Part shown: in pieces, positions 37,088 through 44,557 of the stretch
How the letters are laid out: every line of letters begins with the position of its first letter
Position numbering within the stretch: the stretch's first letter is position 1
From: Streptomyces sp. Je 1-79
Lineage (GTDB): Bacteria > Actinomycetota > Actinomycetes > Streptomycetales > Streptomycetaceae
Length of the DNA stretch: 64,000 nucleotides
Assembly: GCF_025195125.1 (NCBI RefSeq)
Contig: NZ_JAMGSL010000002.1
Location: 372,001-436,000 of the forward strand
Reading direction: 5' to 3'
Translations under genes and position numbers: made by a program
Notes under the pieces: generated by a model
What the model was told of the DNA's origin: nothing
The model's input: the letters and a program-made list of their open reading frames with translations, nothing else
The model's database searches: none

Positions 37088-38116
37088 CTACCGGACCGTG
37101 GCCGCCGGGGCGGCCTCCGGGCGGGTGCGGTTCCAGGGCATCCGGGACCATGGGAGCGCCAGTTCGCTCTGGTCGGAGACGTCCCGGGGGGCGAGGTTCT
37201 TGAGCGGGGTGGCCTCGTCGTGGCGGGCGAAGACCGTGTCGACGTAGCGGTGGCCGGTGTCGGCGGCGATGAAGAGGACCGTCCGCCCGGCGTCGCGCTC
37301 GCGTTCGTGGTGCGCGGCGAGGTAGCCGGCGCCGGTCGACAGGCCCGCGAAGACCGCGTGTCTGCGCAGCAGGTCGACGCTGCCGGACAGCGCCGCGTCG
37401 AAGGAGATCCAGTGCAGGGTGTCGTACAGCTCGTGCGAGACGTTGCCGAAGGGGATGGAGCTGCCGATCCCGGCGATGATGATCTCCGGGTCGGCGACGT
37501 GCTCGGCGCCGAAGGTCACGCTGCCGTACGGCTGCACGCCCACGAGCCGGACGTCGGCCGGGCCGCCCGGGGCTGTGCGCAGCCGGCGGGCGAGGGCGCC
37601 GGTCGAGGCGCCCGAGCCGACCCCGCCGACGAGGGTGAGCCCCTCCCCGCCGGTGGCCTCGCGGATCCGGTCGGCGATCGCACGGTAGCCGAGGTAGTGG
37701 ATGTCGTCGTGGTACTGCCGCATCCAGTGGTACTCGGGGTGCGCGGCGAGGATCTCGTGGATGCGCTCCACCCGCCGCTTCTGGTCGAGTTTGAGGTCGT
37801 CGCACGGATCCATCTGTTCCAGCGTGGCGCCGAGGACGGCCAGTTGGGTCCGCAGCGTCCGGTCCACCGTCGTCGAGCCGACGATGTGGCAGCGCATGCC
37901 GTGCCGGTGACAGGCCAGGGCGAGCGCGTACGCGTAGATGCCGCTGGAGCTGTCCAGGAGCGTGTCCCCGGGCCGTACGGTTCCGGTGTCGAGCAGGTGG
38001 CGCACCGCGGCGAGGGCCGAGACCACCTTCATCGTCTCAAAGCGCAGGCAGACGAGCCGGTCGTCGAGGCGTATCAGGTCCGGCCGGCCGATCGCCTCCG
38101 CGATGTGCTGGTCCAT
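37088..38116 (-). CDS. PLP-dependent beta-substituting enzyme (cysteine synthase/SbnA-like)
   Basis: A 342-residue fold-type II PLP enzyme. The probable Schiff-base Lys is Lys30 in FETMKVVSA, the substrate loop is SSSGIYAYALA, and the phosphate loop is GGVGSGASTGALA. The usual NPTGSxKDR context is altered, so the substrate differs from ordinary cysteine synthase. With a GHMP kinase just upstream, a route of phosphorylating Ser or Thr and then replacing the phosphate by an amine to make a diamino-acid metallophore part is plausible but inferred. AAGGAG precedes the ATG, and the gene begins within the end of the kinase gene. Confidence 0.75.
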   Translation of the reverse strand: MDQHIAEAIGRPDLIRLDDRLVCLRFETMKVVSALAAVRHLLDTGTVRPGDTLLDSSSGIYAYALALACHRHGMRCHIVGSTTVDRTLRTQLAVLGATLEQMDPCDDLKLDQKRRVERIHEILAAHPEYHWMRQYHDDIHYLGYRAIADRIREATGGEGLTLVGGVGSGASTGALARRLRTAPGGPADVRLVGVQPYGSVTFGAEHVADPEIIIAGIGSSIPFGNVSHELYDTLHWISFDAALSGSVDLLRRHAVFAGLSTGAGYLAAHHERERDAGRTVLFIAADTGHRYVDTVFARHDEATPLKNLAPRDVSDQSELALPWSRMPWNRTRPEAAPAATVR

Positions 38117-39230
38117 TCAGGAACTCCTTGGTGGTGGGGAAGGTCGTGAAGGTCCGGGTGGCGGGGATGCCGTGGGAGTCCAGGGCGCGCAGGCAGTGGC
38201 GCACACGGTGCCGCAGCCCCGGCGCGGCCGGGTCGAGGAGCACGCCCGCCACCGCGCCGCTGTGCGCGATCTGTACGCCCGCCGCACCGACCTGCCGCGC
38301 GACGGCCGTCAAGGTGTCGAACTCCGGGTGGCCAAGGACCTGTTGGCCGCGCCGGGCGCTTGCGGTGGCGACCTCGCCCAGGAGCCCGGCGTCTCCGGTG
38401 GCCACCGCACGGCGCAGCAGTGCGCGCAGCCGCTCGTACTCCCGGATGTCGACGTCGGCGGCCTCCCGTGCGGGCAGGGCGAGCGTGTCCACGGGCGCGC
38501 CCCCGCCGAGCGTGCAGCCCACGACGACCAGGGGCGGGAGGGCCGGGCCGAGGATCTCCAGGACCCGGCCCTCCCGCTGGGCGAAGAGCACCGGACGGCC
38601 GTCCAGCATCAGCGGATCGCAGGCCAGTTCCGCCCGGACGGCCAGCCGGGCGACCGTCTCGGGGGCGAGCCGCAGCCCGTACGAGTCGGCGACGGCGCGG
38701 ACGGTGGCGATCACGTCGCTGGTCGAGCTGCCCATGCCCAGCCCCACCGGGATGTCCCCCACGAGCCTCAACTCCCCGCCCGAGGGCGGGAGTCCCGCTC
38801 GCCGCGCGCACTCCACGACCGTCAGCGCCGCGGCGTCCGCGGCCTTCGTGCGGTCGGCGGGTACGACGGTGAGCGCTTCGGGTGCGGTACCGGGGCGGCG
38901 GGCGAACCGGGCGCGGCTGCCGGGGCCGGCCATGGGGAGGGTGACCAGGCCGGCGCACGTGCGCCCTTCGCCGTCGAGGAACGCCCCCTGGAGGATCTCG
39001 CCGTGGTGGCACGGCGCGTACCCGGTGCCGGTGGGGAGGGCACCGGCATCGGGTACGGCCGGACTGTGGGCCGCCCTGCCCGGCAGGGCCGGGTGGCGGG
39101 CCGTGTCCGCCCCGGCCGGGTGGTGGGCGGCCGGACTCTGGGGAGCCGGACGGTGGGCGGCCGTGCCCGCCACGGCCGGGCGGTGGGCCATCGTGCCCGC
39201 CACGGCCAGGGGGTGGGTGGTCGGGGTCAC
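38037..39230 (-). CDS. GHMP family kinase (threonine/serine kinase-like)
   Basis: A 397-residue protein. The first about 58 residues are Ala/His/Pro-rich imperfect repeats of the AVAGTxAHRP type, probably disordered. The kinase domain has GTGYAPCHHGEILQG, and VGLGMGSSTSDV as the ATP loop, similar to PduX-type L-threonine kinases. The GTG start overlaps the upstream stop as GTGA. The end overlaps the next gene by 80 bases, which is long for this strand. The likely role is to activate a hydroxy amino acid for the PLP enzyme. Confidence 0.8.
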   Translation of the reverse strand: MTPTTHPLAVAGTMAHRPAVAGTAAHRPAPQSPAAHHPAGADTARHPALPGRAAHSPAVPDAGALPTGTGYAPCHHGEILQGAFLDGEGRTCAGLVTLPMAGPGSRARFARRPGTAPEALTVVPADRTKAADAAALTVVECARRAGLPPSGGELRLVGDIPVGLGMGSSTSDVIATVRAVADSYGLRLAPETVARLAVRAELACDPLMLDGRPVLFAQREGRVLEILGPALPPLVVVGCTLGGGAPVDTLALPAREAADVDIREYERLRALLRRAVATGDAGLLGEVATASARRGQQVLGHPEFDTLTAVARQVGAAGVQIAHSGAVAGVLLDPAAPGLRHRVRHCLRALDSHGIPATRTFTTFPTTKEFLNGPAHRGGDRPAGPDTPRRPARLPAL

Positions 39231-40090
39231 GCGCCGCCCACCGTCCGGTAGCGGTACAGGGCCGTCTCCTCGGCGCTGAACTGGGAGAAGGGGAACGGCT
39301 CCGCCGACAGGGCGGTCACACCCGAGCCGAGAAAGGCGCGGGCGACGGCGCTGCCGGTCTGCGCGTAGACGATCAGCGGGATGCCCCGGGACCGACAGCG
39401 CTCCAGGACGGTGTCGAACGAGCCGTTGCTCAGGGTCATCCCGGTGGCCACGACGGCTTCGGCGCGGTCGAGCACCTCGTGCATGTCGGCCGTGACGGGG
39501 TCGCCCCACTGGGTGGCCTTGAGGTTGAAGTCGCAGGGCAGCGGCTCGCCGCCGCGCTCACGGATCGCCGCGACCAGCGGGTTGACGACGCCGATGAGAC
39601 CGACCGTGGCGCCCTGCTCGATGTCGAGCAGCCCGGCGATGGCCGCGTCGCGGGCCTTCGCACGGACCTCCGGGGCGCCGGAGGGCAGGGTCACGGGCTC
39701 GGCCTCGCCCGACTCCCCGGCGACGCGGTGCGGGCGGACCTCGGAGAGGTAGGCGTCGAGGGCGGCGATCCGCAGGGGGCGCGGGGCCTCGCGCAGCAGG
39801 ACGTCGAGCGGGGTGCCGGAGGAGTCGCGGCAGACCGACGGGTCGATCTCGCCGGCCTCGAAGGCGCAGCCGCCGAAGGAGCCGCCGAGGCGGACCAGGA
39901 CGTACTGATTGAGGTAGGTCGTGTCACCGCCCGCCAGGCGGGTGCCGTGGTGGATCCAGAACACGCTGGTCGCGACGAGTTCCGAGGGAAGCGGGCCGTG
40001 CTCGCCGGCCAGAACCGCCTCGACGAGCGCCTCGACGGAAAGGACTGGGTTAGGGGTGGAAAGTACAGGGGTGGAGGGGGCCAGAGCCAT
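39227..40090 (-). CDS. Rossmann-like DUF364/DUF4213 protein
   Basis: A 287-residue protein. The N-terminal half contains WIHHGTRLAGGDTTYLNQYV and ends near PLDVLLREAP, resembling DUF4213. The C-terminal half has GLIGVVNPLV and ATGMTLSNGSFDTVL, resembling DUF364, a family often beside FecCD-type metal-chelate importers. The role may be chelate handling; no catalysis is shown. The ATG has GAGAAGGAAA upstream. Confidence 0.78.
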   Translation of the reverse strand: MALAPSTPVLSTPNPVLSVEALVEAVLAGEHGPLPSELVATSVFWIHHGTRLAGGDTTYLNQYVLVRLGGSFGGCAFEAGEIDPSVCRDSSGTPLDVLLREAPRPLRIAALDAYLSEVRPHRVAGESGEAEPVTLPSGAPEVRAKARDAAIAGLLDIEQGATVGLIGVVNPLVAAIRERGGEPLPCDFNLKATQWGDPVTADMHEVLDRAEAVVATGMTLSNGSFDTVLERCRSRGIPLIVYAQTGSAVARAFLGSGVTALSAEPFPFSQFSAEETALYRYRTVGGA

Positions 40091-40101
40091 GGGTTTCCTT
40101 C

Positions 40102-40911
40102 TCACAGGGCGGGTTGGGGTGCCGGGACGGCGGTCCGGCGTCGCGTGCCCAGCGGGCCGCGGTAGGTGACGGCCGGGTGCCCCAGCGCGTCGGTGGTGAG
40201 CGCGGCGTCCACCTCGAAGACCTCGGCGAGCCGCTCGGCCGTCAGTACGGCGGCAGGGGTGCCGGAGGCGACGAGGCGGCCGTGGTGCAGGAGCAGCAGC
40301 CGGTCGCAGTAGCGGGCGGCGAGCGACAGGTCGTGCAGCGCGACCAGGACCGTCTGGTCGGTGCCGGCCAGCAGCTCCATCAGCTCCAACTGGTGCTTGA
40401 CGTCGAGGTGGTTGGTCGGCTCGTCCAGCAGGAGCGCGTACGGCTGCTGGGCCAGCGCGCGGGCGATGTGGGCGCGCTGCCGCTCGCCGCCGGACAGCGC
40501 CTTCCAGGAGCGGCCGGCGAGTGCGGTGAGTCCGACACGTTCCAGCGCGGCGGCGACCACGGCCCGGTCGGTGGCGTCCGGTCCGCGCCAGCGGTCCCGG
40601 AAGGGAGTACGGCCCAGGCCGACGACGTCCGCGACCCGCAGATCGCTGTCGGCACCCGAGCCCTGTTCGACGAACGCGACGTGACGGGCGATCCGGCGCG
40701 CACTCCAGTCCCGTACGGATTCGCCGTCGTAGCGGACCGTGCCGGTGTCGGGGGCCCGCAGGCCGGCCAGGCAGCGCAGCAGCGAGGACTTGCCCGAGCC
40801 GTTGGGGCCGAGCAGCCCGACGGTCTCGCCGGGGGCGATGTCCGCGTCGACCTCCCGTACGACCGGGGTGCCGGCCACCGACCAGCTGAGCGTCTCGGCG
40901 GTGATCCTCAC
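40102..40911 (-). CDS. ABC importer ATPase, FecE/BtuD type
   Basis: A 269-residue ATPase with Walker A GPNGSGKSS, signature LSGGERQR, Walker B ALLLDEPTNHLD and a switch His in ALHDLSLAARY. It powers the FecCD-type permease encoded upstream; its GTG start overlaps that permease stop as GTGA. The complex should import a metal chelate or similar compound. Confidence 0.93.
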   Translation of the reverse strand: MRITAETLSWSVAGTPVVREVDADIAPGETVGLLGPNGSGKSSLLRCLAGLRAPDTGTVRYDGESVRDWSARRIARHVAFVEQGSGADSDLRVADVVGLGRTPFRDRWRGPDATDRAVVAAALERVGLTALAGRSWKALSGGERQRAHIARALAQQPYALLLDEPTNHLDVKHQLELMELLAGTDQTVLVALHDLSLAARYCDRLLLLHHGRLVASGTPAAVLTAERLAEVFEVDAALTTDALGHPAVTYRGPLGTRRRTAVPAPQPAL

Positions 40912-42092
40912 AGCTCACCCCGCTTGCGCAGGACGAGGAGGAAGAGCGGTACGCCGAGCAGGGCGGTGATCACGCCGACCGGGACCTCGCGCGGCGCGAA
41001 GGCGATCCGGGCGAGCGCGTCCGTCCACACCAGGAACACCGCGCCCGCGAGCGCCGCGTACGGCAGCAGCACCCGGTGCGACGGCCCCACGAGGAACCGC
41101 ACCCCGTGGGGGACGATCAGCCCGACGAAGCCGATGGCGCCGACGGTGGCCACCGCGACCGCCGTCAGGGCGGCGGTGACCACGAGCAGGAGCATCCGGG
41201 TGCGCCGTACGCCGATGCCGAGGGAGGCGGCGGTGTCGGTGCCGAACGCGAGCCCGTCGAGGGCGTTCGAGCGGAGCCACGCGACCGCGAGACCGAGCGG
41301 GGTGACGATCGCGCAGACCACGACCGTGTCCCAGCGGGCCGGCGCCATCGAGCCGAGGAGCCAGTGGGTGACCGCCCGCGTGGTGTCGGCGTCCGCCGAG
41401 GCCATCAGGACGAGCGAGGTCAGCGCGGTGAAGAGCTGGCCGATGACGACTCCGGTGAGGACGATCCGTACGGAGTCGAGGCCGGTGCGCCGCAGCAGAA
41501 GGAGCAGGAGCGCGAAGGAGAGCAGCGCGCCGGCGAGCGCACCGCCGGTGACCCCGAGCGTGCTCGCGCCGACCCCGAGGACGACGACGGCCACGGCTCC
41601 CGCCGACGCGCCGGAGGAGACGCCGAGGAGGTAGGGGTCGGCGAGCGCGTTACGGGTGACCGCCTGGAGCACCGCGCCGCACACGGCGAGCGAGGCCCCG
41701 ACGAGGGCGGCCATCAGCACGCGCGGCAGCCGCAGGTCCCAGACGAGGGAGTCCAGCAACGGGGGCAGGGGCTCCACGTCCAGTCCGAGACGGGCGCCGA
41801 GGACACGGGCGAGGTCCGCCCAGCCCACGTCGGCGGTACCGACGCGCACGGCCGCGGCGATCGAGCCCGCCAGAGCGGCCACGGCGAGGAGCAGGAGGAG
41901 AGCCCGGGCACCCCGGGACGTGCCATTTCCGTACGGCCGAAGGGCGACGCCCCCGCCGGACGGCGCGGCGGCGCCTCCCCCGCCCGACACGGCCCGCGTG
42001 ACGACGGACTCCCCCGGCCCCGCCTCCCGCCCCCGGGCCGCCGGGCGCAGCAGGTCGACCGGACCTCCCCCGGCGTCCGGTTCAGCGGACAT
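40908..42092 (-). CDS. FecCD-type ABC importer permease
   Basis: A 394-residue permease. After a 60-residue Gly/Ala-rich cytosolic extension come about ten membrane helices with typical FecCD segments (WDLRLPRVLMAALVGASLAVCGAVLQAVTRNALADP, VSSGASAGA, GFVGLIVPHGVRFLVGP, all as separate blocks). It forms a homodimer channel for siderophore or metal-chelate import. It overlaps the binding-protein gene stop by 11 bases. Confidence 0.92.
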   Translation of the reverse strand: MSAEPDAGGGPVDLLRPAARGREAGPGESVVTRAVSGGGGAAAPSGGGVALRPYGNGTSRGARALLLLLAVAALAGSIAAAVRVGTADVGWADLARVLGARLGLDVEPLPPLLDSLVWDLRLPRVLMAALVGASLAVCGAVLQAVTRNALADPYLLGVSSGASAGAVAVVVLGVGASTLGVTGGALAGALLSFALLLLLLRRTGLDSVRIVLTGVVIGQLFTALTSLVLMASADADTTRAVTHWLLGSMAPARWDTVVVCAIVTPLGLAVAWLRSNALDGLAFGTDTAASLGIGVRRTRMLLLVVTAALTAVAVATVGAIGFVGLIVPHGVRFLVGPSHRVLLPYAALAGAVFLVWTDALARIAFAPREVPVGVITALLGVPLFLLVLRKRGEL

Positions 42093-43131
42093 GGCCGAGG
42101 CCCTTCATCCCCTGGGCCAGCAGCCCGAGCGCGTGTACGGAGCGGACCGACGGGTCCAGCTCGATGCCCGGCACCGTGAGGATCCGGCCTTCGCGGACCG
42201 CGGACAGCTTCGAGACCACGGGGTGGCGGGTCATCGTGGCGCGCTTCTCGGCGGCGCTGTCGCCGGGCCGTCCGCGCTCGGACAGGTCGCCGATCACGAT
42301 GAAGTCCGGGTCGCGCTCGGCGACTTCCTCCCAGGTGACCTCCGGCCAGTCCTCGTCCACGTCGTCGAAGGCGTTCTTCGCGCCGACGATCCGGCTCATC
42401 TCGCTGGGCAGACCGGTCCCGCCCGCCACGTACGGCATGCCGTTGAAGACGGAGTAGAGGTAGACGACCGTCGGCCGGTCCGCGCCCCGGGGGGCCCTGG
42501 AGGCGTTCTCCCCCGCCTTGGCGACCGCGGCGCGCTGCTCGGTCGCCAGCCGGTCGGCCCGCTCCTGCGCGCCGAAGACCTTGCCGAGGTTCTCGTAGTC
42601 GGAGAAGAGCAGCTCGAAGGGGGTCGCGCCGGCCGGGCTCTGCCGCGGGCAGTCGACGGCGCTGACGAAGGTGGGGACCTTGAGGGCGTCCAGCTCCTCA
42701 CGGGTGCCGGCCCGGTCCTTGGTGAAGAGGTCCGCGGAGCCACCGACGACGAAGTCGGGTGTGGCGGCCCTCAGTTGTTCACCGGTGGCGATCTTCGGGG
42801 CGATGACCGGGATCCCGGCGTACGCGGCCTCGTAGCGCGCGGGGATCTTCGTCTTGAGGTTGGCGGTGCCCGCCATCCTTTCCTGGAGTCCGAGTTCGAG
42901 CAGGGTCTCGGTCGAGGTCTGGTCCAGGGCGACGGTCCGCCGCGGCGGTTCGGCGAAGGACACCCGGCGGCCGCAACTGGTGACGGAGGCCGACGCGGCG
43001 GAAGCCGACGCGGCGGTGGACCTGGCGGCGGGCTCGGAGTCCGCTCCGGCACCGCCGCCGCCGGCCGCGGAGCAGCCCGCGGTGGCGAGGGCGAGGGTGA
43101 GGGCGATGCCGAGACGGGCGGGGTGGCGCAT
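42082..43131 (-). CDS. Metal-chelate ABC transporter binding lipoprotein
   Basis: A 349-residue lipoprotein with signal peptide and lipobox ending TAGC. The mature part matches the FepB/BtuF class III binding fold (RTVALDQTSTETLLELGL, VVGGSADLF, YVAGGTGLPSEM, DPDFIVIGD). It captures the chelate outside the cell for the FecCD permease. It is the first gene of the import and synthesis operon, with a Zur-like box upstream shared with the divergent MFS gene. Confidence 0.92.
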   Translation of the reverse strand: MRHPARLGIALTLALATAGCSAAGGGGAGADSEPAARSTAASASAASASVTSCGRRVSFAEPPRRTVALDQTSTETLLELGLQERMAGTANLKTKIPARYEAAYAGIPVIAPKIATGEQLRAATPDFVVGGSADLFTKDRAGTREELDALKVPTFVSAVDCPRQSPAGATPFELLFSDYENLGKVFGAQERADRLATEQRAAVAKAGENASRAPRGADRPTVVYLYSVFNGMPYVAGGTGLPSEMSRIVGAKNAFDDVDEDWPEVTWEEVAERDPDFIVIGDLSERGRPGDSAAEKRATMTRHPVVSKLSAVREGRILTVPGIELDPSVRSVHALGLLAQGMKGLGHVR

Positions 43132-43195
43132 GGGCGATCTCCGGTCTGAGGAAGCGGGGGGCACCGGGCAGGAGTGCCGCGTTCGAAGGGTACTG

Positions 43196-43216
43196 TAACG
43201 ACAATCGTTTTCATTA
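43196..43216. promoter_or_regulatory. Zur-like operator between the divergent chelate operon and MFS gene
   Basis: The 21 bases fit the actinobacterial Zur form TnnTGAnAATnATTnTCAnnA at all but two fixed positions (core CGACAATCGTTTTCA). It stands where it could cover both divergent promoters. Zinc control of the cluster is inferred. Confidence 0.7.
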
Positions 43217-43273
43217 ACCACTTCGGGGTGTGGTTCACCGCCCCGCCCCCGCCCTCCGAGGAGCACCCACACC

Positions 43274-44557
43274 GTGTCCACCACACCCGCGCCCACCACG
43301 GCCAATTCCACTGCCCCGCCGCCGCGTTCGGTCCTGCGCGACCCCGCCTTCCTGCGCCTGTGGACGGGCACCACCGCCTCCGGCCTCGCGACCTGGGCCC
43401 TGCCCTTCGTCCTCGGGCTCGCCGTACTCCACCGCGACCTCGGTGGAGCGGGACTCGGCCTGGTGCTCGCCGCCCGCACCGTCGGCTTCCTCGTCGCCGT
43501 CGCCGTCGGCGGCGTGCTGGCCGACCGGCACTCCCGCCGCGCGGTCGTCCTCTGGTCCGCCCTCGCGGCCGCGGTCGCCGCGCCGCTCCTCGCCGCCGGG
43601 CTCGGCCGTTCGGTCGTGCTGATGGCGGCCGCCGCCGCCCTCGCGGGCGCCGGACAGGGCGCCTGCCGCCCGGCGTTCCAGGCACTCACCGCCGAGACCG
43701 TCGCCCCCGAGCGCCGTCAGCAGGCCAACGCCGCCATGACGATGGCGGTACGGAGCTCCACGCTGGCCGGCCCCGCCCTGACCGCGCTGCTCGCGGCCCT
43801 CCTCGACGTCGGGACGCTGCTGCTCGGCATCGGTCTCCTCTGGCTGGTCGCGGCGCTGGTCCCCGGCAAGGGCACGATCGGCCCGCCCAAGGGCGCCGCA
43901 TCCGGCTCGGCCCAAAGCACCGGCTTCCGTACGGAGTTCCTGGAAGGCATACGGGAGGCGCGCCGCCATCCCTGGTTCCTGGCCGGACTCGGCGCCCTGG
44001 TCGCCGTCATCGCCCTCGGCTACTCCGCCACCAGCGTCGCCCTGCCCCTGATCAGCCGGGACCGCTACGACACCGAGTGGGTGCTGGCCGCCGCCATGAC
44101 CGCGTACACCGTGGGCGCGCTGGGTGGCGCCCTGGTGATCGCCCGCCTGCGGCCGCGCTCCCAGGGCTGGGCGGCCTTCGCCGGGCTCGCGGCCTACGGC
44201 TTCGCACCGCTGAGCCTCGTGCTGCCCGTGCACCCGGTCGTGGTCGTCGCCGCGTACGCCGTGGCCGGGGTCGGCATCGAACTGTTCAACGTGCCCTGGT
44301 TCACGGCCACCCAGCGCGAGGTCGCCCCGGACAAGCTGGCCCGCGTCTCCTCGCTGGACTTCCTGGTCTCCTACGGTCTCGCGCCGGTCGGCCTCGCGCT
44401 GATCGCCCCGGCCATCGACCTGTTCGGGGTCACCGCCGTCCTCACGGTCTGCGCCGCGGCCTGCTTCCTCGTACCGGCGGCGGCGGCCCTGACACCCACG
44501 GCCCGCCACTTCGGGCGCACGGACCCGGCCGCCACTGACGGACGGCCGCCGCTGTGA
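43274..44557 (+). CDS. MFS transporter, possible metallophore exporter
   Basis: A 427-residue major facilitator protein with about twelve membrane helices and the loop GGVLADRHSRR between helices 2 and 3. It resembles drug or siderophore exporters (EntS-like). Starting with GTG behind GAGGAG, it is divergent from the chelate importer operon across a Zur-like box, so it may export a product of the kinase and PLP enzyme. A strong hairpin follows. Confidence 0.88.
   Translation: MSTTPAPTTANSTAPPPRSVLRDPAFLRLWTGTTASGLATWALPFVLGLAVLHRDLGGAGLGLVLAARTVGFLVAVAVGGVLADRHSRRAVVLWSALAAAVAAPLLAAGLGRSVVLMAAAAALAGAGQGACRPAFQALTAETVAPERRQQANAAMTMAVRSSTLAGPALTALLAALLDVGTLLLGIGLLWLVAALVPGKGTIGPPKGAASGSAQSTGFRTEFLEGIREARRHPWFLAGLGALVAVIALGYSATSVALPLISRDRYDTEWVLAAAMTAYTVGALGGALVIARLRPRSQGWAAFAGLAAYGFAPLSLVLPVHPVVVVAAYAVAGVGIELFNVPWFTATQREVAPDKLARVSSLDFLVSYGLAPVGLALIAPAIDLFGVTAVLTVCAAACFLVPAAAALTPTARHFGRTDPAATDGRPPL

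What the first reader, a model, noticed from the sequence alone, without database searches (positions are those of the whole stretch)
37088..44557. Possible Zur-controlled mini-pathway for a metallophore
GHMP kinase plus PLP beta-substituting enzyme could make a diamino-acid chelator, DUF364 and FecCD importer genes fit chelate uptake, and a divergent MFS fits export, all around a 21-base box matching the Zur form at all but two fixed positions. I do not know a described product for this set.
Basis: partly seen in the sequence, partly recalled or inferred. Interest (0 to 1): 0.68.

Follow-up and report, generated by a model that had tools for sequence, protein, structure and literature searches.

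The report
Zinc-controlled chelator gene cluster
A Streptomyces operon that looks built to make, export and take back a small amino-acid zinc chelator sits behind the same kind of zinc-repressor site as the cell's main zinc importer, and versions of it occur in many actinobacteria with no product described in the papers I could search.

Summary
At 37088-44557 a six-gene minus-strand operon (FecB-type binding protein, FecCD permease, ATPase, DUF364, GHMP kinase, SbnA-like PLP enzyme) faces a divergent MFS gene. A matrix trained only on 30 Streptomyces znuA promoters scores the box at 43196-43216 at 30.0; znuA sites score 20.7-34.2, the next best place in the window 5.5. The unit recurs across Actinomycetes, also on plasmids. 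A Zur-type box lies just upstream of a cluster gene in 115 of 137 DUF364-bearing loci, and in 0 of 27 loci with a related PLP enzyme but no DUF364. Most likely this is a Zur-repressed, NRPS-independent metallophore system: the kinase makes an O-phospho-amino acid, the PLP enzyme replaces the phosphate with an amino acid, and, with no lyase, SbnB or decarboxylase in the unit, the adduct itself is the chelator. Regulation and transport are well supported; the chemistry is inferred, DUF364's step is unknown, and there are no expression data. The EDDS-type operon that I found in a genome I take for A. japonicum has different genes. New variant of a known kind.

The parts
37088..38116 (-). PLP enzyme, SbnA-like beta-substituting family (PALP); catalytic lysine inferred at residue 29
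   Evidence: Pfam PALP; below the SbnA equivalog cut-off, 127.9 of 349.95 bits; family profile closest to SbnA among solved structures, its MK motif aligned to SbnA's SMKDR; model on SbnA 5d87 TMq 0.78
38037..39230 (-). GHMP-family small-molecule kinase (GTG start chosen at the overlap with the DUF364 stop; start not proven)
   Evidence: Pfam GHMP_kinases_N and _C; only weak matches to named kinases; overlaps the PLP gene by 80 bases, as in L082
39227..40090 (-). DUF364 protein (PF04016), signature gene of the Zur-type clusters
   Evidence: Pfam; model matches 3l5o Z 18.0 and 3npg Z 17.7; 64-78% identical across the nearer relatives aligned
40102..40911 (-). ABC importer ATPase, FecE-type
   Evidence: Pfam ABC_tran; nearest NCBIfam models F420-0 and EitC transporters, below cut-off
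40908..42092 (-). ABC importer permease, FecCD
   Evidence: Pfam FecCD E 8e-88
42082..43131 (-). FecB-type substrate-binding protein with a lipoprotein-like N-terminus (by eye)
   Evidence: Pfam Peripla_BP_2; sequence
43196..43216 (.). Zur-type operator between the divergent units
   Evidence: znuA-trained matrix 30.0 bits, next best in window 5.5; re-trained matrices 29.1 and 26.5; conserved at the same place in orthologues
43274..44557 (+). MFS transporter, exporter candidate
   Evidence: Pfam MFS_1 and MFS_3; divergent from the operon

Best explanation
This is a Zur-repressed, NRPS-independent metallophore system, most likely for zinc. When zinc is short, Zur leaves 43196-43216 and both divergent units are expressed. 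The GHMP kinase phosphorylates the hydroxyl of serine or threonine; the SbnA-like PLP enzyme eliminates the phosphate and adds the amino group of a second amino acid (aspartate most likely), giving an N-(2-amino-2-carboxyethyl)-amino acid or its methyl homologue, which binds metal through amines and carboxylates. The MFS protein exports it and the FecB/FecCD/ATPase importer brings the metal complex back. DUF364 either matures the ligand or helps release the metal inside. Shown by computation: gene order, domains, the Zur-type box and its conservation, co-conservation of the genes. Inferred: that Zur binds, kinase substrate, nucleophile, product, metal, transport directions, DUF364's role.
For: Box as good as the genome's own znuA sites (33.7 and 28.8 against 30.0). 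Box within 600 bases upstream of a cluster gene in 115 of 137 DUF364 loci, 0 of 27 DUF364-less loci; five column-shuffled matrices 0-2 of 137. Importers that moved elsewhere often have a box of their own, e.g. L055, L159, L233. Of 127 close DUF364 loci 124 hold the PLP gene, 121 an MFS gene, 104 FecCD, 101 a GHMP kinase, in several gene orders, with plasmid copies. PLP family profile closest to SbnA and also matching CmnB. DUF364's structure paper proposes a role in metal chelation (passages of PMC2954201). No convincing iron box (best 11 of 19).
Against: No expression, binding or metabolite data. 26 of 127 close loci show no GHMP kinase and 23 no FecCD within reach (some loci are cut), so neither is strictly required. 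22 of 137 loci show no box in reach; L060, L061, L167, L251 and L266 show none at all though not obviously cut. The PLP family lacks the SGN asparagine loop of canonical members (SSGIYA), so the reaction may differ. The serine/threonine and aspartate choices rest on analogy. Box conservation shows that a regulator site is kept, not which metal is carried.
Confidence: 0.7

Rival explanations
1. Same metallophore system, but the adduct is split, by a lyase or oxidase encoded elsewhere or by DUF364 itself, to a free 2,3-diamino acid that is the ligand or a building block of a larger one.
For: Distant kinase+PLP pairs stand beside argininosuccinate-lyase-type genes (L041-L049). The SbnA family makes diaminopropionate in known pathways.
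Against: 0 of 127 close DUF364 loci hold such a lyase, while the distant pairs keep it next door; no SbnB-type domain in the window unit.
Confidence: 0.13
2. A Zur-type metal uptake system whose enzymes modify or recycle a ligand taken from outside rather than make one.
For: Importer and DUF364 are nearly always present; DUF364 is found near metal transporters elsewhere (passages of PMC2954201).
Against: A kinase plus a beta-substituting PLP enzyme and a divergent exporter candidate point to synthesis; 121 of 127 close loci hold an MFS gene.
Confidence: 0.09
3. Zinc-sparing back-up of ordinary amino acid or cofactor metabolism (for example an amino-acid kinase for cobalamin side chains, or a cysteine-synthase stand-in) that happens to be under Zur.
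For: Zur regulons include ribosomal protein genes (rpmF, rpmG/B in passages of PMC5472717); the kinase motif GEILQG resembles the threonine kinase PduX (recalled, not tested).
Against: The transport genes stay with the enzymes across families and in new gene orders; the PLP enzyme is far below the cysteine synthase cut-offs.
Confidence: 0.05

Closest known systems
[S,S]-EDDS (aes) zincophore pathway of Amycolatopsis japonicum
   Same: Zur-controlled, non-NRPS, small zinc chelator (passages of PMC4993170, PMC9252823, PMC13379591); the operon that I take for it has an SbnA-like enzyme behind a 31.6-bit Zur-type box.
   Different: That operon holds an SbnB-like gene, a decarboxylase-like gene and, by eye, a MATE-type exporter; the window unit has instead a GHMP kinase, DUF364, FecBCD and MFS. 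The two PLP enzymes are 29% identical over 267 columns.
SbnA/SbnB diaminopropionate pathway (staphyloferrin B) and CmnB (capreomycin)
   Same: PLP enzyme of the same family and fold.
   Different: Below the SbnA equivalog cut-off, no SbnB, no asparagine loop, dedicated kinase.
Kinase + PLP + argininosuccinate-lyase sets (L089, Azospirillum oryzae L190, Mesorhizobium pMLa L088)
   Same: Related GHMP kinase and PLP enzyme side by side.
   Different: They carry a lyase and an ATP-grasp part, no DUF364, and no Zur-type box in L088 and L089 (L190 was not scanned).
DUF364 proteins of known structure (3l5o, 3npg)
   Same: Same fold, Z 18.0 and 17.7; proposed role in metal chelation (PMC2954201).
   Different: Here tied to a kinase/PLP pair and a Zur-type box, which gives a testable pathway.

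Membership tests
Zur regulon of actinobacteria | Operator matching the Zur motif in the promoter region | tested here: met
   30.0 bits with a znuA-trained matrix; conserved in orthologues
Zur regulon of actinobacteria | Zinc- and Zur-dependent expression and binding | not testable with these tools
   needs experiment
EDDS (aes) pathway | SbnB-like and decarboxylase-like genes beside the SbnA-like gene (as seen in the operon that I take for aes) | tested here: not met
Aminopolycarboxylic acid metallophore class | Product is an aminopolycarboxylate that binds metal | not testable with these tools
   product unknown; class named in antiSMASH 7 (passage of PMC10320115); its rule was not available
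SbnA equivalog (TIGR03945) | Score above the curated cut-off | tested here: not met
   127.9 bits against 349.95
SbnA-like / fold-type II beta-substituting PLP enzymes | PALP domain, fold and catalytic lysine | tested here: met
DUF364 (PF04016) | Pfam gathering score and fold of 3l5o/3npg | tested here: met
   44.1 bits against 23; Z 18.0 and 17.7
F420-0 ABC transporter (TIGR03868/03869/03873) | Scores above the curated cut-offs | tested here: not met
   163.4/392.4, 306.1/437.35, 295.2/372.4 bits
L-threonine kinase PduX-like | Phosphorylates L-threonine | not tested
   motif resemblance recalled only

The most novel reading that the evidence does not exclude
DUF364, the SbnA-like PLP enzyme and (in most lineages) an amino-acid kinase define an uncharacterised class of NRPS-independent zincophore pathway, spread over many and perhaps hundreds of actinobacterial species and partly on plasmids. 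Its ligand is an uncleaved amino-acid adduct, methylated or hydroxylated in some lineages, and DUF364 is the signature enzyme, which would get its first function here.
Probability: 0.45. Interest if true: 0.78.

Novelty: new variant of a known kind. Interest (0 to 1): 0.64.

Why it matters
Few zincophores are known, and many lack the usual NRPS or NIS marker enzymes. A compact cassette marked by a Zur-type box, found in many actinobacterial genomes and on plasmids, would add a route to small zinc chelators, give at least some DUF364 proteins a function, and offer a simple rule (DUF364 beside an SbnA-like enzyme plus a Zur box) for finding more.

Tried and rejected
Iron control: a scan for the DmdR/IdeR-type box (consensus recalled) gave at best 11 of 19 in the window cluster. 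EDDS membership: rejected on gene content. F420-0 transporter: below cut-offs. M. smegmatis Zur paper PMC7174638: of the words DUF364, GHMP, cysteine synthase, siderophore, metallophore and MFS only 'siderophore' occurs, in a reference. Literature on this gene set: I recognised none in the listings (open-access library only, listings only); the EDDS and EDHA papers were not among them and were not read. My first orientation of the znuA loci by stop counts failed and was replaced by the strands printed. DUF364's C-terminal part resembles fold-type I PLP enzymes (Z 9.4-10.7), but no lysine is invariant in the family alignment, so I do not read it as a PLP enzyme. A nicotianamine-synthase-like role for DUF364 was considered; no such entry is among the 50 rows shown, which is no disproof. 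A GC3 gene caller missed genes; the counts rest on tblastn instead. Loci were gathered by homology, and some genomes were fetched twice, so 137 loci are not 137 species. Against that text I toned down the spread (496 relatives were not all checked for the rest of the unit), restricted the NRPS statement to the annotated case, and set the odds anew for the full list of rivals.
Full report
What is there. I take it for Streptomyces: a genome of the same genus (G018) has a contig of 389,246 bases, the length of one named S. cinnamoneus. From 43131 to 37088 on the minus strand six genes overlap or nearly abut: a FecB-type binding protein, a FecCD permease, an ATPase, a DUF364 protein, a GHMP kinase and a PLP enzyme; an MFS gene starts at 43274 on the plus strand. 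NCBI's annotation of the same seven genes on a Streptomyces melanogenes plasmid agrees in order, with the same 80-base kinase/PLP overlap.

The Zur-type box. The published S. coelicolor Zur motif is tGaNNatSatNNtCa, and a 21-base motif from actinobacterial znuA genes is taaTGaNAANNNTTNtCANta (passages of PMC5472717). To avoid circularity I trained a matrix only on 60 sites from 30 Streptomyces znuA promoters, the window's genome included, with both orientations counted. The training sites score 20.7-34.2, the box at 43196-43216 scores 30.0, and the next place in 64 kb scores 5.5. Training on distinct sites only, from all 30 or from the last 13 loci, gives 29.1 and 26.5 against 11.8 and 12.3 for the runner-up. 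The genome's own znuA has sites of 33.7 and 28.8, and a Fur-family gene lies about 2 kb downstream of it. Among orthologues the two arms change together: AACGA...TCGTT in the window and L056, AATGG...TCATT in L050 and L051.

The unit is conserved, and the box goes with DUF364. Homologues of the PLP enzyme at 46% identity or more, fragments included, occur in 56 of 150 Streptomyces genomes (my count from the table, own genome included); these include types without DUF364. DUF364 matches at E 1e-30 or better in 30 of 394 genomes of the class, 8 of 137 genera. Of 127 loci with DUF364 at 55% identity or more, 124 hold the PLP gene (all 124 on the same strand), 121 an MFS gene, 104 FecCD, 101 a GHMP kinase, 58 a HemK-like methyltransferase gene, 10 a PhyH-type oxygenase gene, and none the lyase or the ATP-grasp gene that I searched with (the three without PLP are L205, L229 and L232). 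The importer sits in different places, and then often has a box of its own. A Zur-type box of 12 bits or more lies within 600 bases upstream of a cluster gene in 115 of 137 DUF364 loci and in 0 of 27 loci with a related PLP enzyme and no DUF364; five column-shuffled matrices gave 0-2 of 137 and 0-1 of 27. The 22 misses are listed: some are cut by contig ends (for example L202, L205, L207, L263), some have the box further upstream (for example L173, L188, L242, L268), and L060, L061, L167, L251 and L266 show none. In 12 further loci of the family Pseudonocardiaceae (as I take it), of 4 with DUF364 three have a box at the cluster and one further away; of 8 without DUF364 none has one at its promoter, though L283 and L285 hold weak 13-bit sites elsewhere. 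Loci were gathered by homology, not at random, and some genomes appear twice.

What the enzymes do. Among solved structures the PLP family's profile is closest to SbnA (E 4.6e-47) and also matches CmnB; its MK motif falls on SbnA's SMKDR. The model (pLDDT 86) superposes on SbnA with TMq 0.78, about as well as on cysteine synthases. It is no SbnA equivalog, and in place of the asparagine loop it has SSGIYA. The kinase is of the GHMP family, substrate unknown; the 'hypothetical protein' in the Tsukamurella plasmid unit is a GHMP kinase too. DUF364 folds like 3l5o (Z 18.0) and 3npg (Z 17.7); the structure paper suggests condensation or hydrolysis in making a chelator (passages of PMC2954201). Distant kinase+PLP pairs stand beside argininosuccinate-lyase-type genes (L041-L049), in one annotated case with an adenylation-domain gene, and on Azospirillum and Mesorhizobium plasmids, though the Mesorhizobium pMLb pair has no lyase annotated beside it. 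From the chemistry of that lyase family I infer aspartate as nitrogen donor there. Without a lyase here, the aspartate adduct would stay whole; toxin A, of this kind, is a precursor of aspergillomarasmine A (start of the abstract of PMC10792612), which sequesters zinc (title of PMC8319579).

Comparison with EDDS. EDDS is the known precedent: a Zur-regulated zincophore made by neither NRPS nor NIS enzymes, whose genes were found through Zur sites (passages of PMC4993170 and PMC13379591; zinc repression in PMC9252823). In a genome whose large contig has 8,961,318 bases, the length that I recall for A. japonicum, a 31.6-bit box stands at an SbnB-like gene, followed by a decarboxylase-like gene, an SbnA-like gene (29% identical to ours over 267 columns) and, by eye, a MATE-type exporter, with an amidase gene on the other side. 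I take it for the aes operon; the paper itself was not available. That genome's closer PLP homologue (59%) stands with ATP-grasp and FecBCD genes, and no box of 10 bits or more lies upstream of it. antiSMASH 7 has a class for aminopolycarboxylic acid metallophores (passage of PMC10320115); whether its rule catches this unit I could not test.

Verdict. Operator and co-conservation are strong; the metallophore reading follows from them together with the transporters; chemistry, metal and DUF364's step are inference. I recognised no paper on this gene set in the listings, which cover open-access papers only.

Noticed in passing
L163, L164, L166, L168, L169, L175-L177: A second, distant cluster type (ATP-grasp-like, DUF364 about 40%, PLP about 30%, MFS-like, methyltransferase-like, ABC genes) with a Zur-type box 60-100 bases from the ATP-grasp match; L165 and L167 of the same type show no box there.
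   Followed up: partly
L063, L067, L084, L189: Kinase + PLP + ATP-grasp + MFS + methyltransferase clusters with a ferric-reductase-like gene nearby, no DUF364 and no Zur-type box; what controls them is open.
   Followed up: partly
L082, L083, L086: The whole unit lies on plasmids of two Streptomyces strains and, in another gene order, of Tsukamurella tyrosinosolvens.
   Followed up: yes
L184, L237: Two different FecBCD importer sets flank the same enzyme genes, as if importers are exchanged while the enzymes stay.
   Followed up: no
L088:5894-10734: On Mesorhizobium japonicum pMLa a GHMP kinase and PLP gene precede a 905-residue protein that matches ATP-grasp and lyase queries, apparently a fusion.
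   Followed up: no
L322:6271-12410: Probable EDDS operon behind a 31.6-bit Zur-type box: SbnB-like, decarboxylase-like, SbnA-like and exporter-like genes, with a divergent amidase gene.
   Followed up: partly
window 38037-38116: Kinase and PLP genes overlap by 80 bases in different frames; the overlap is the same in L082.
   Followed up: no
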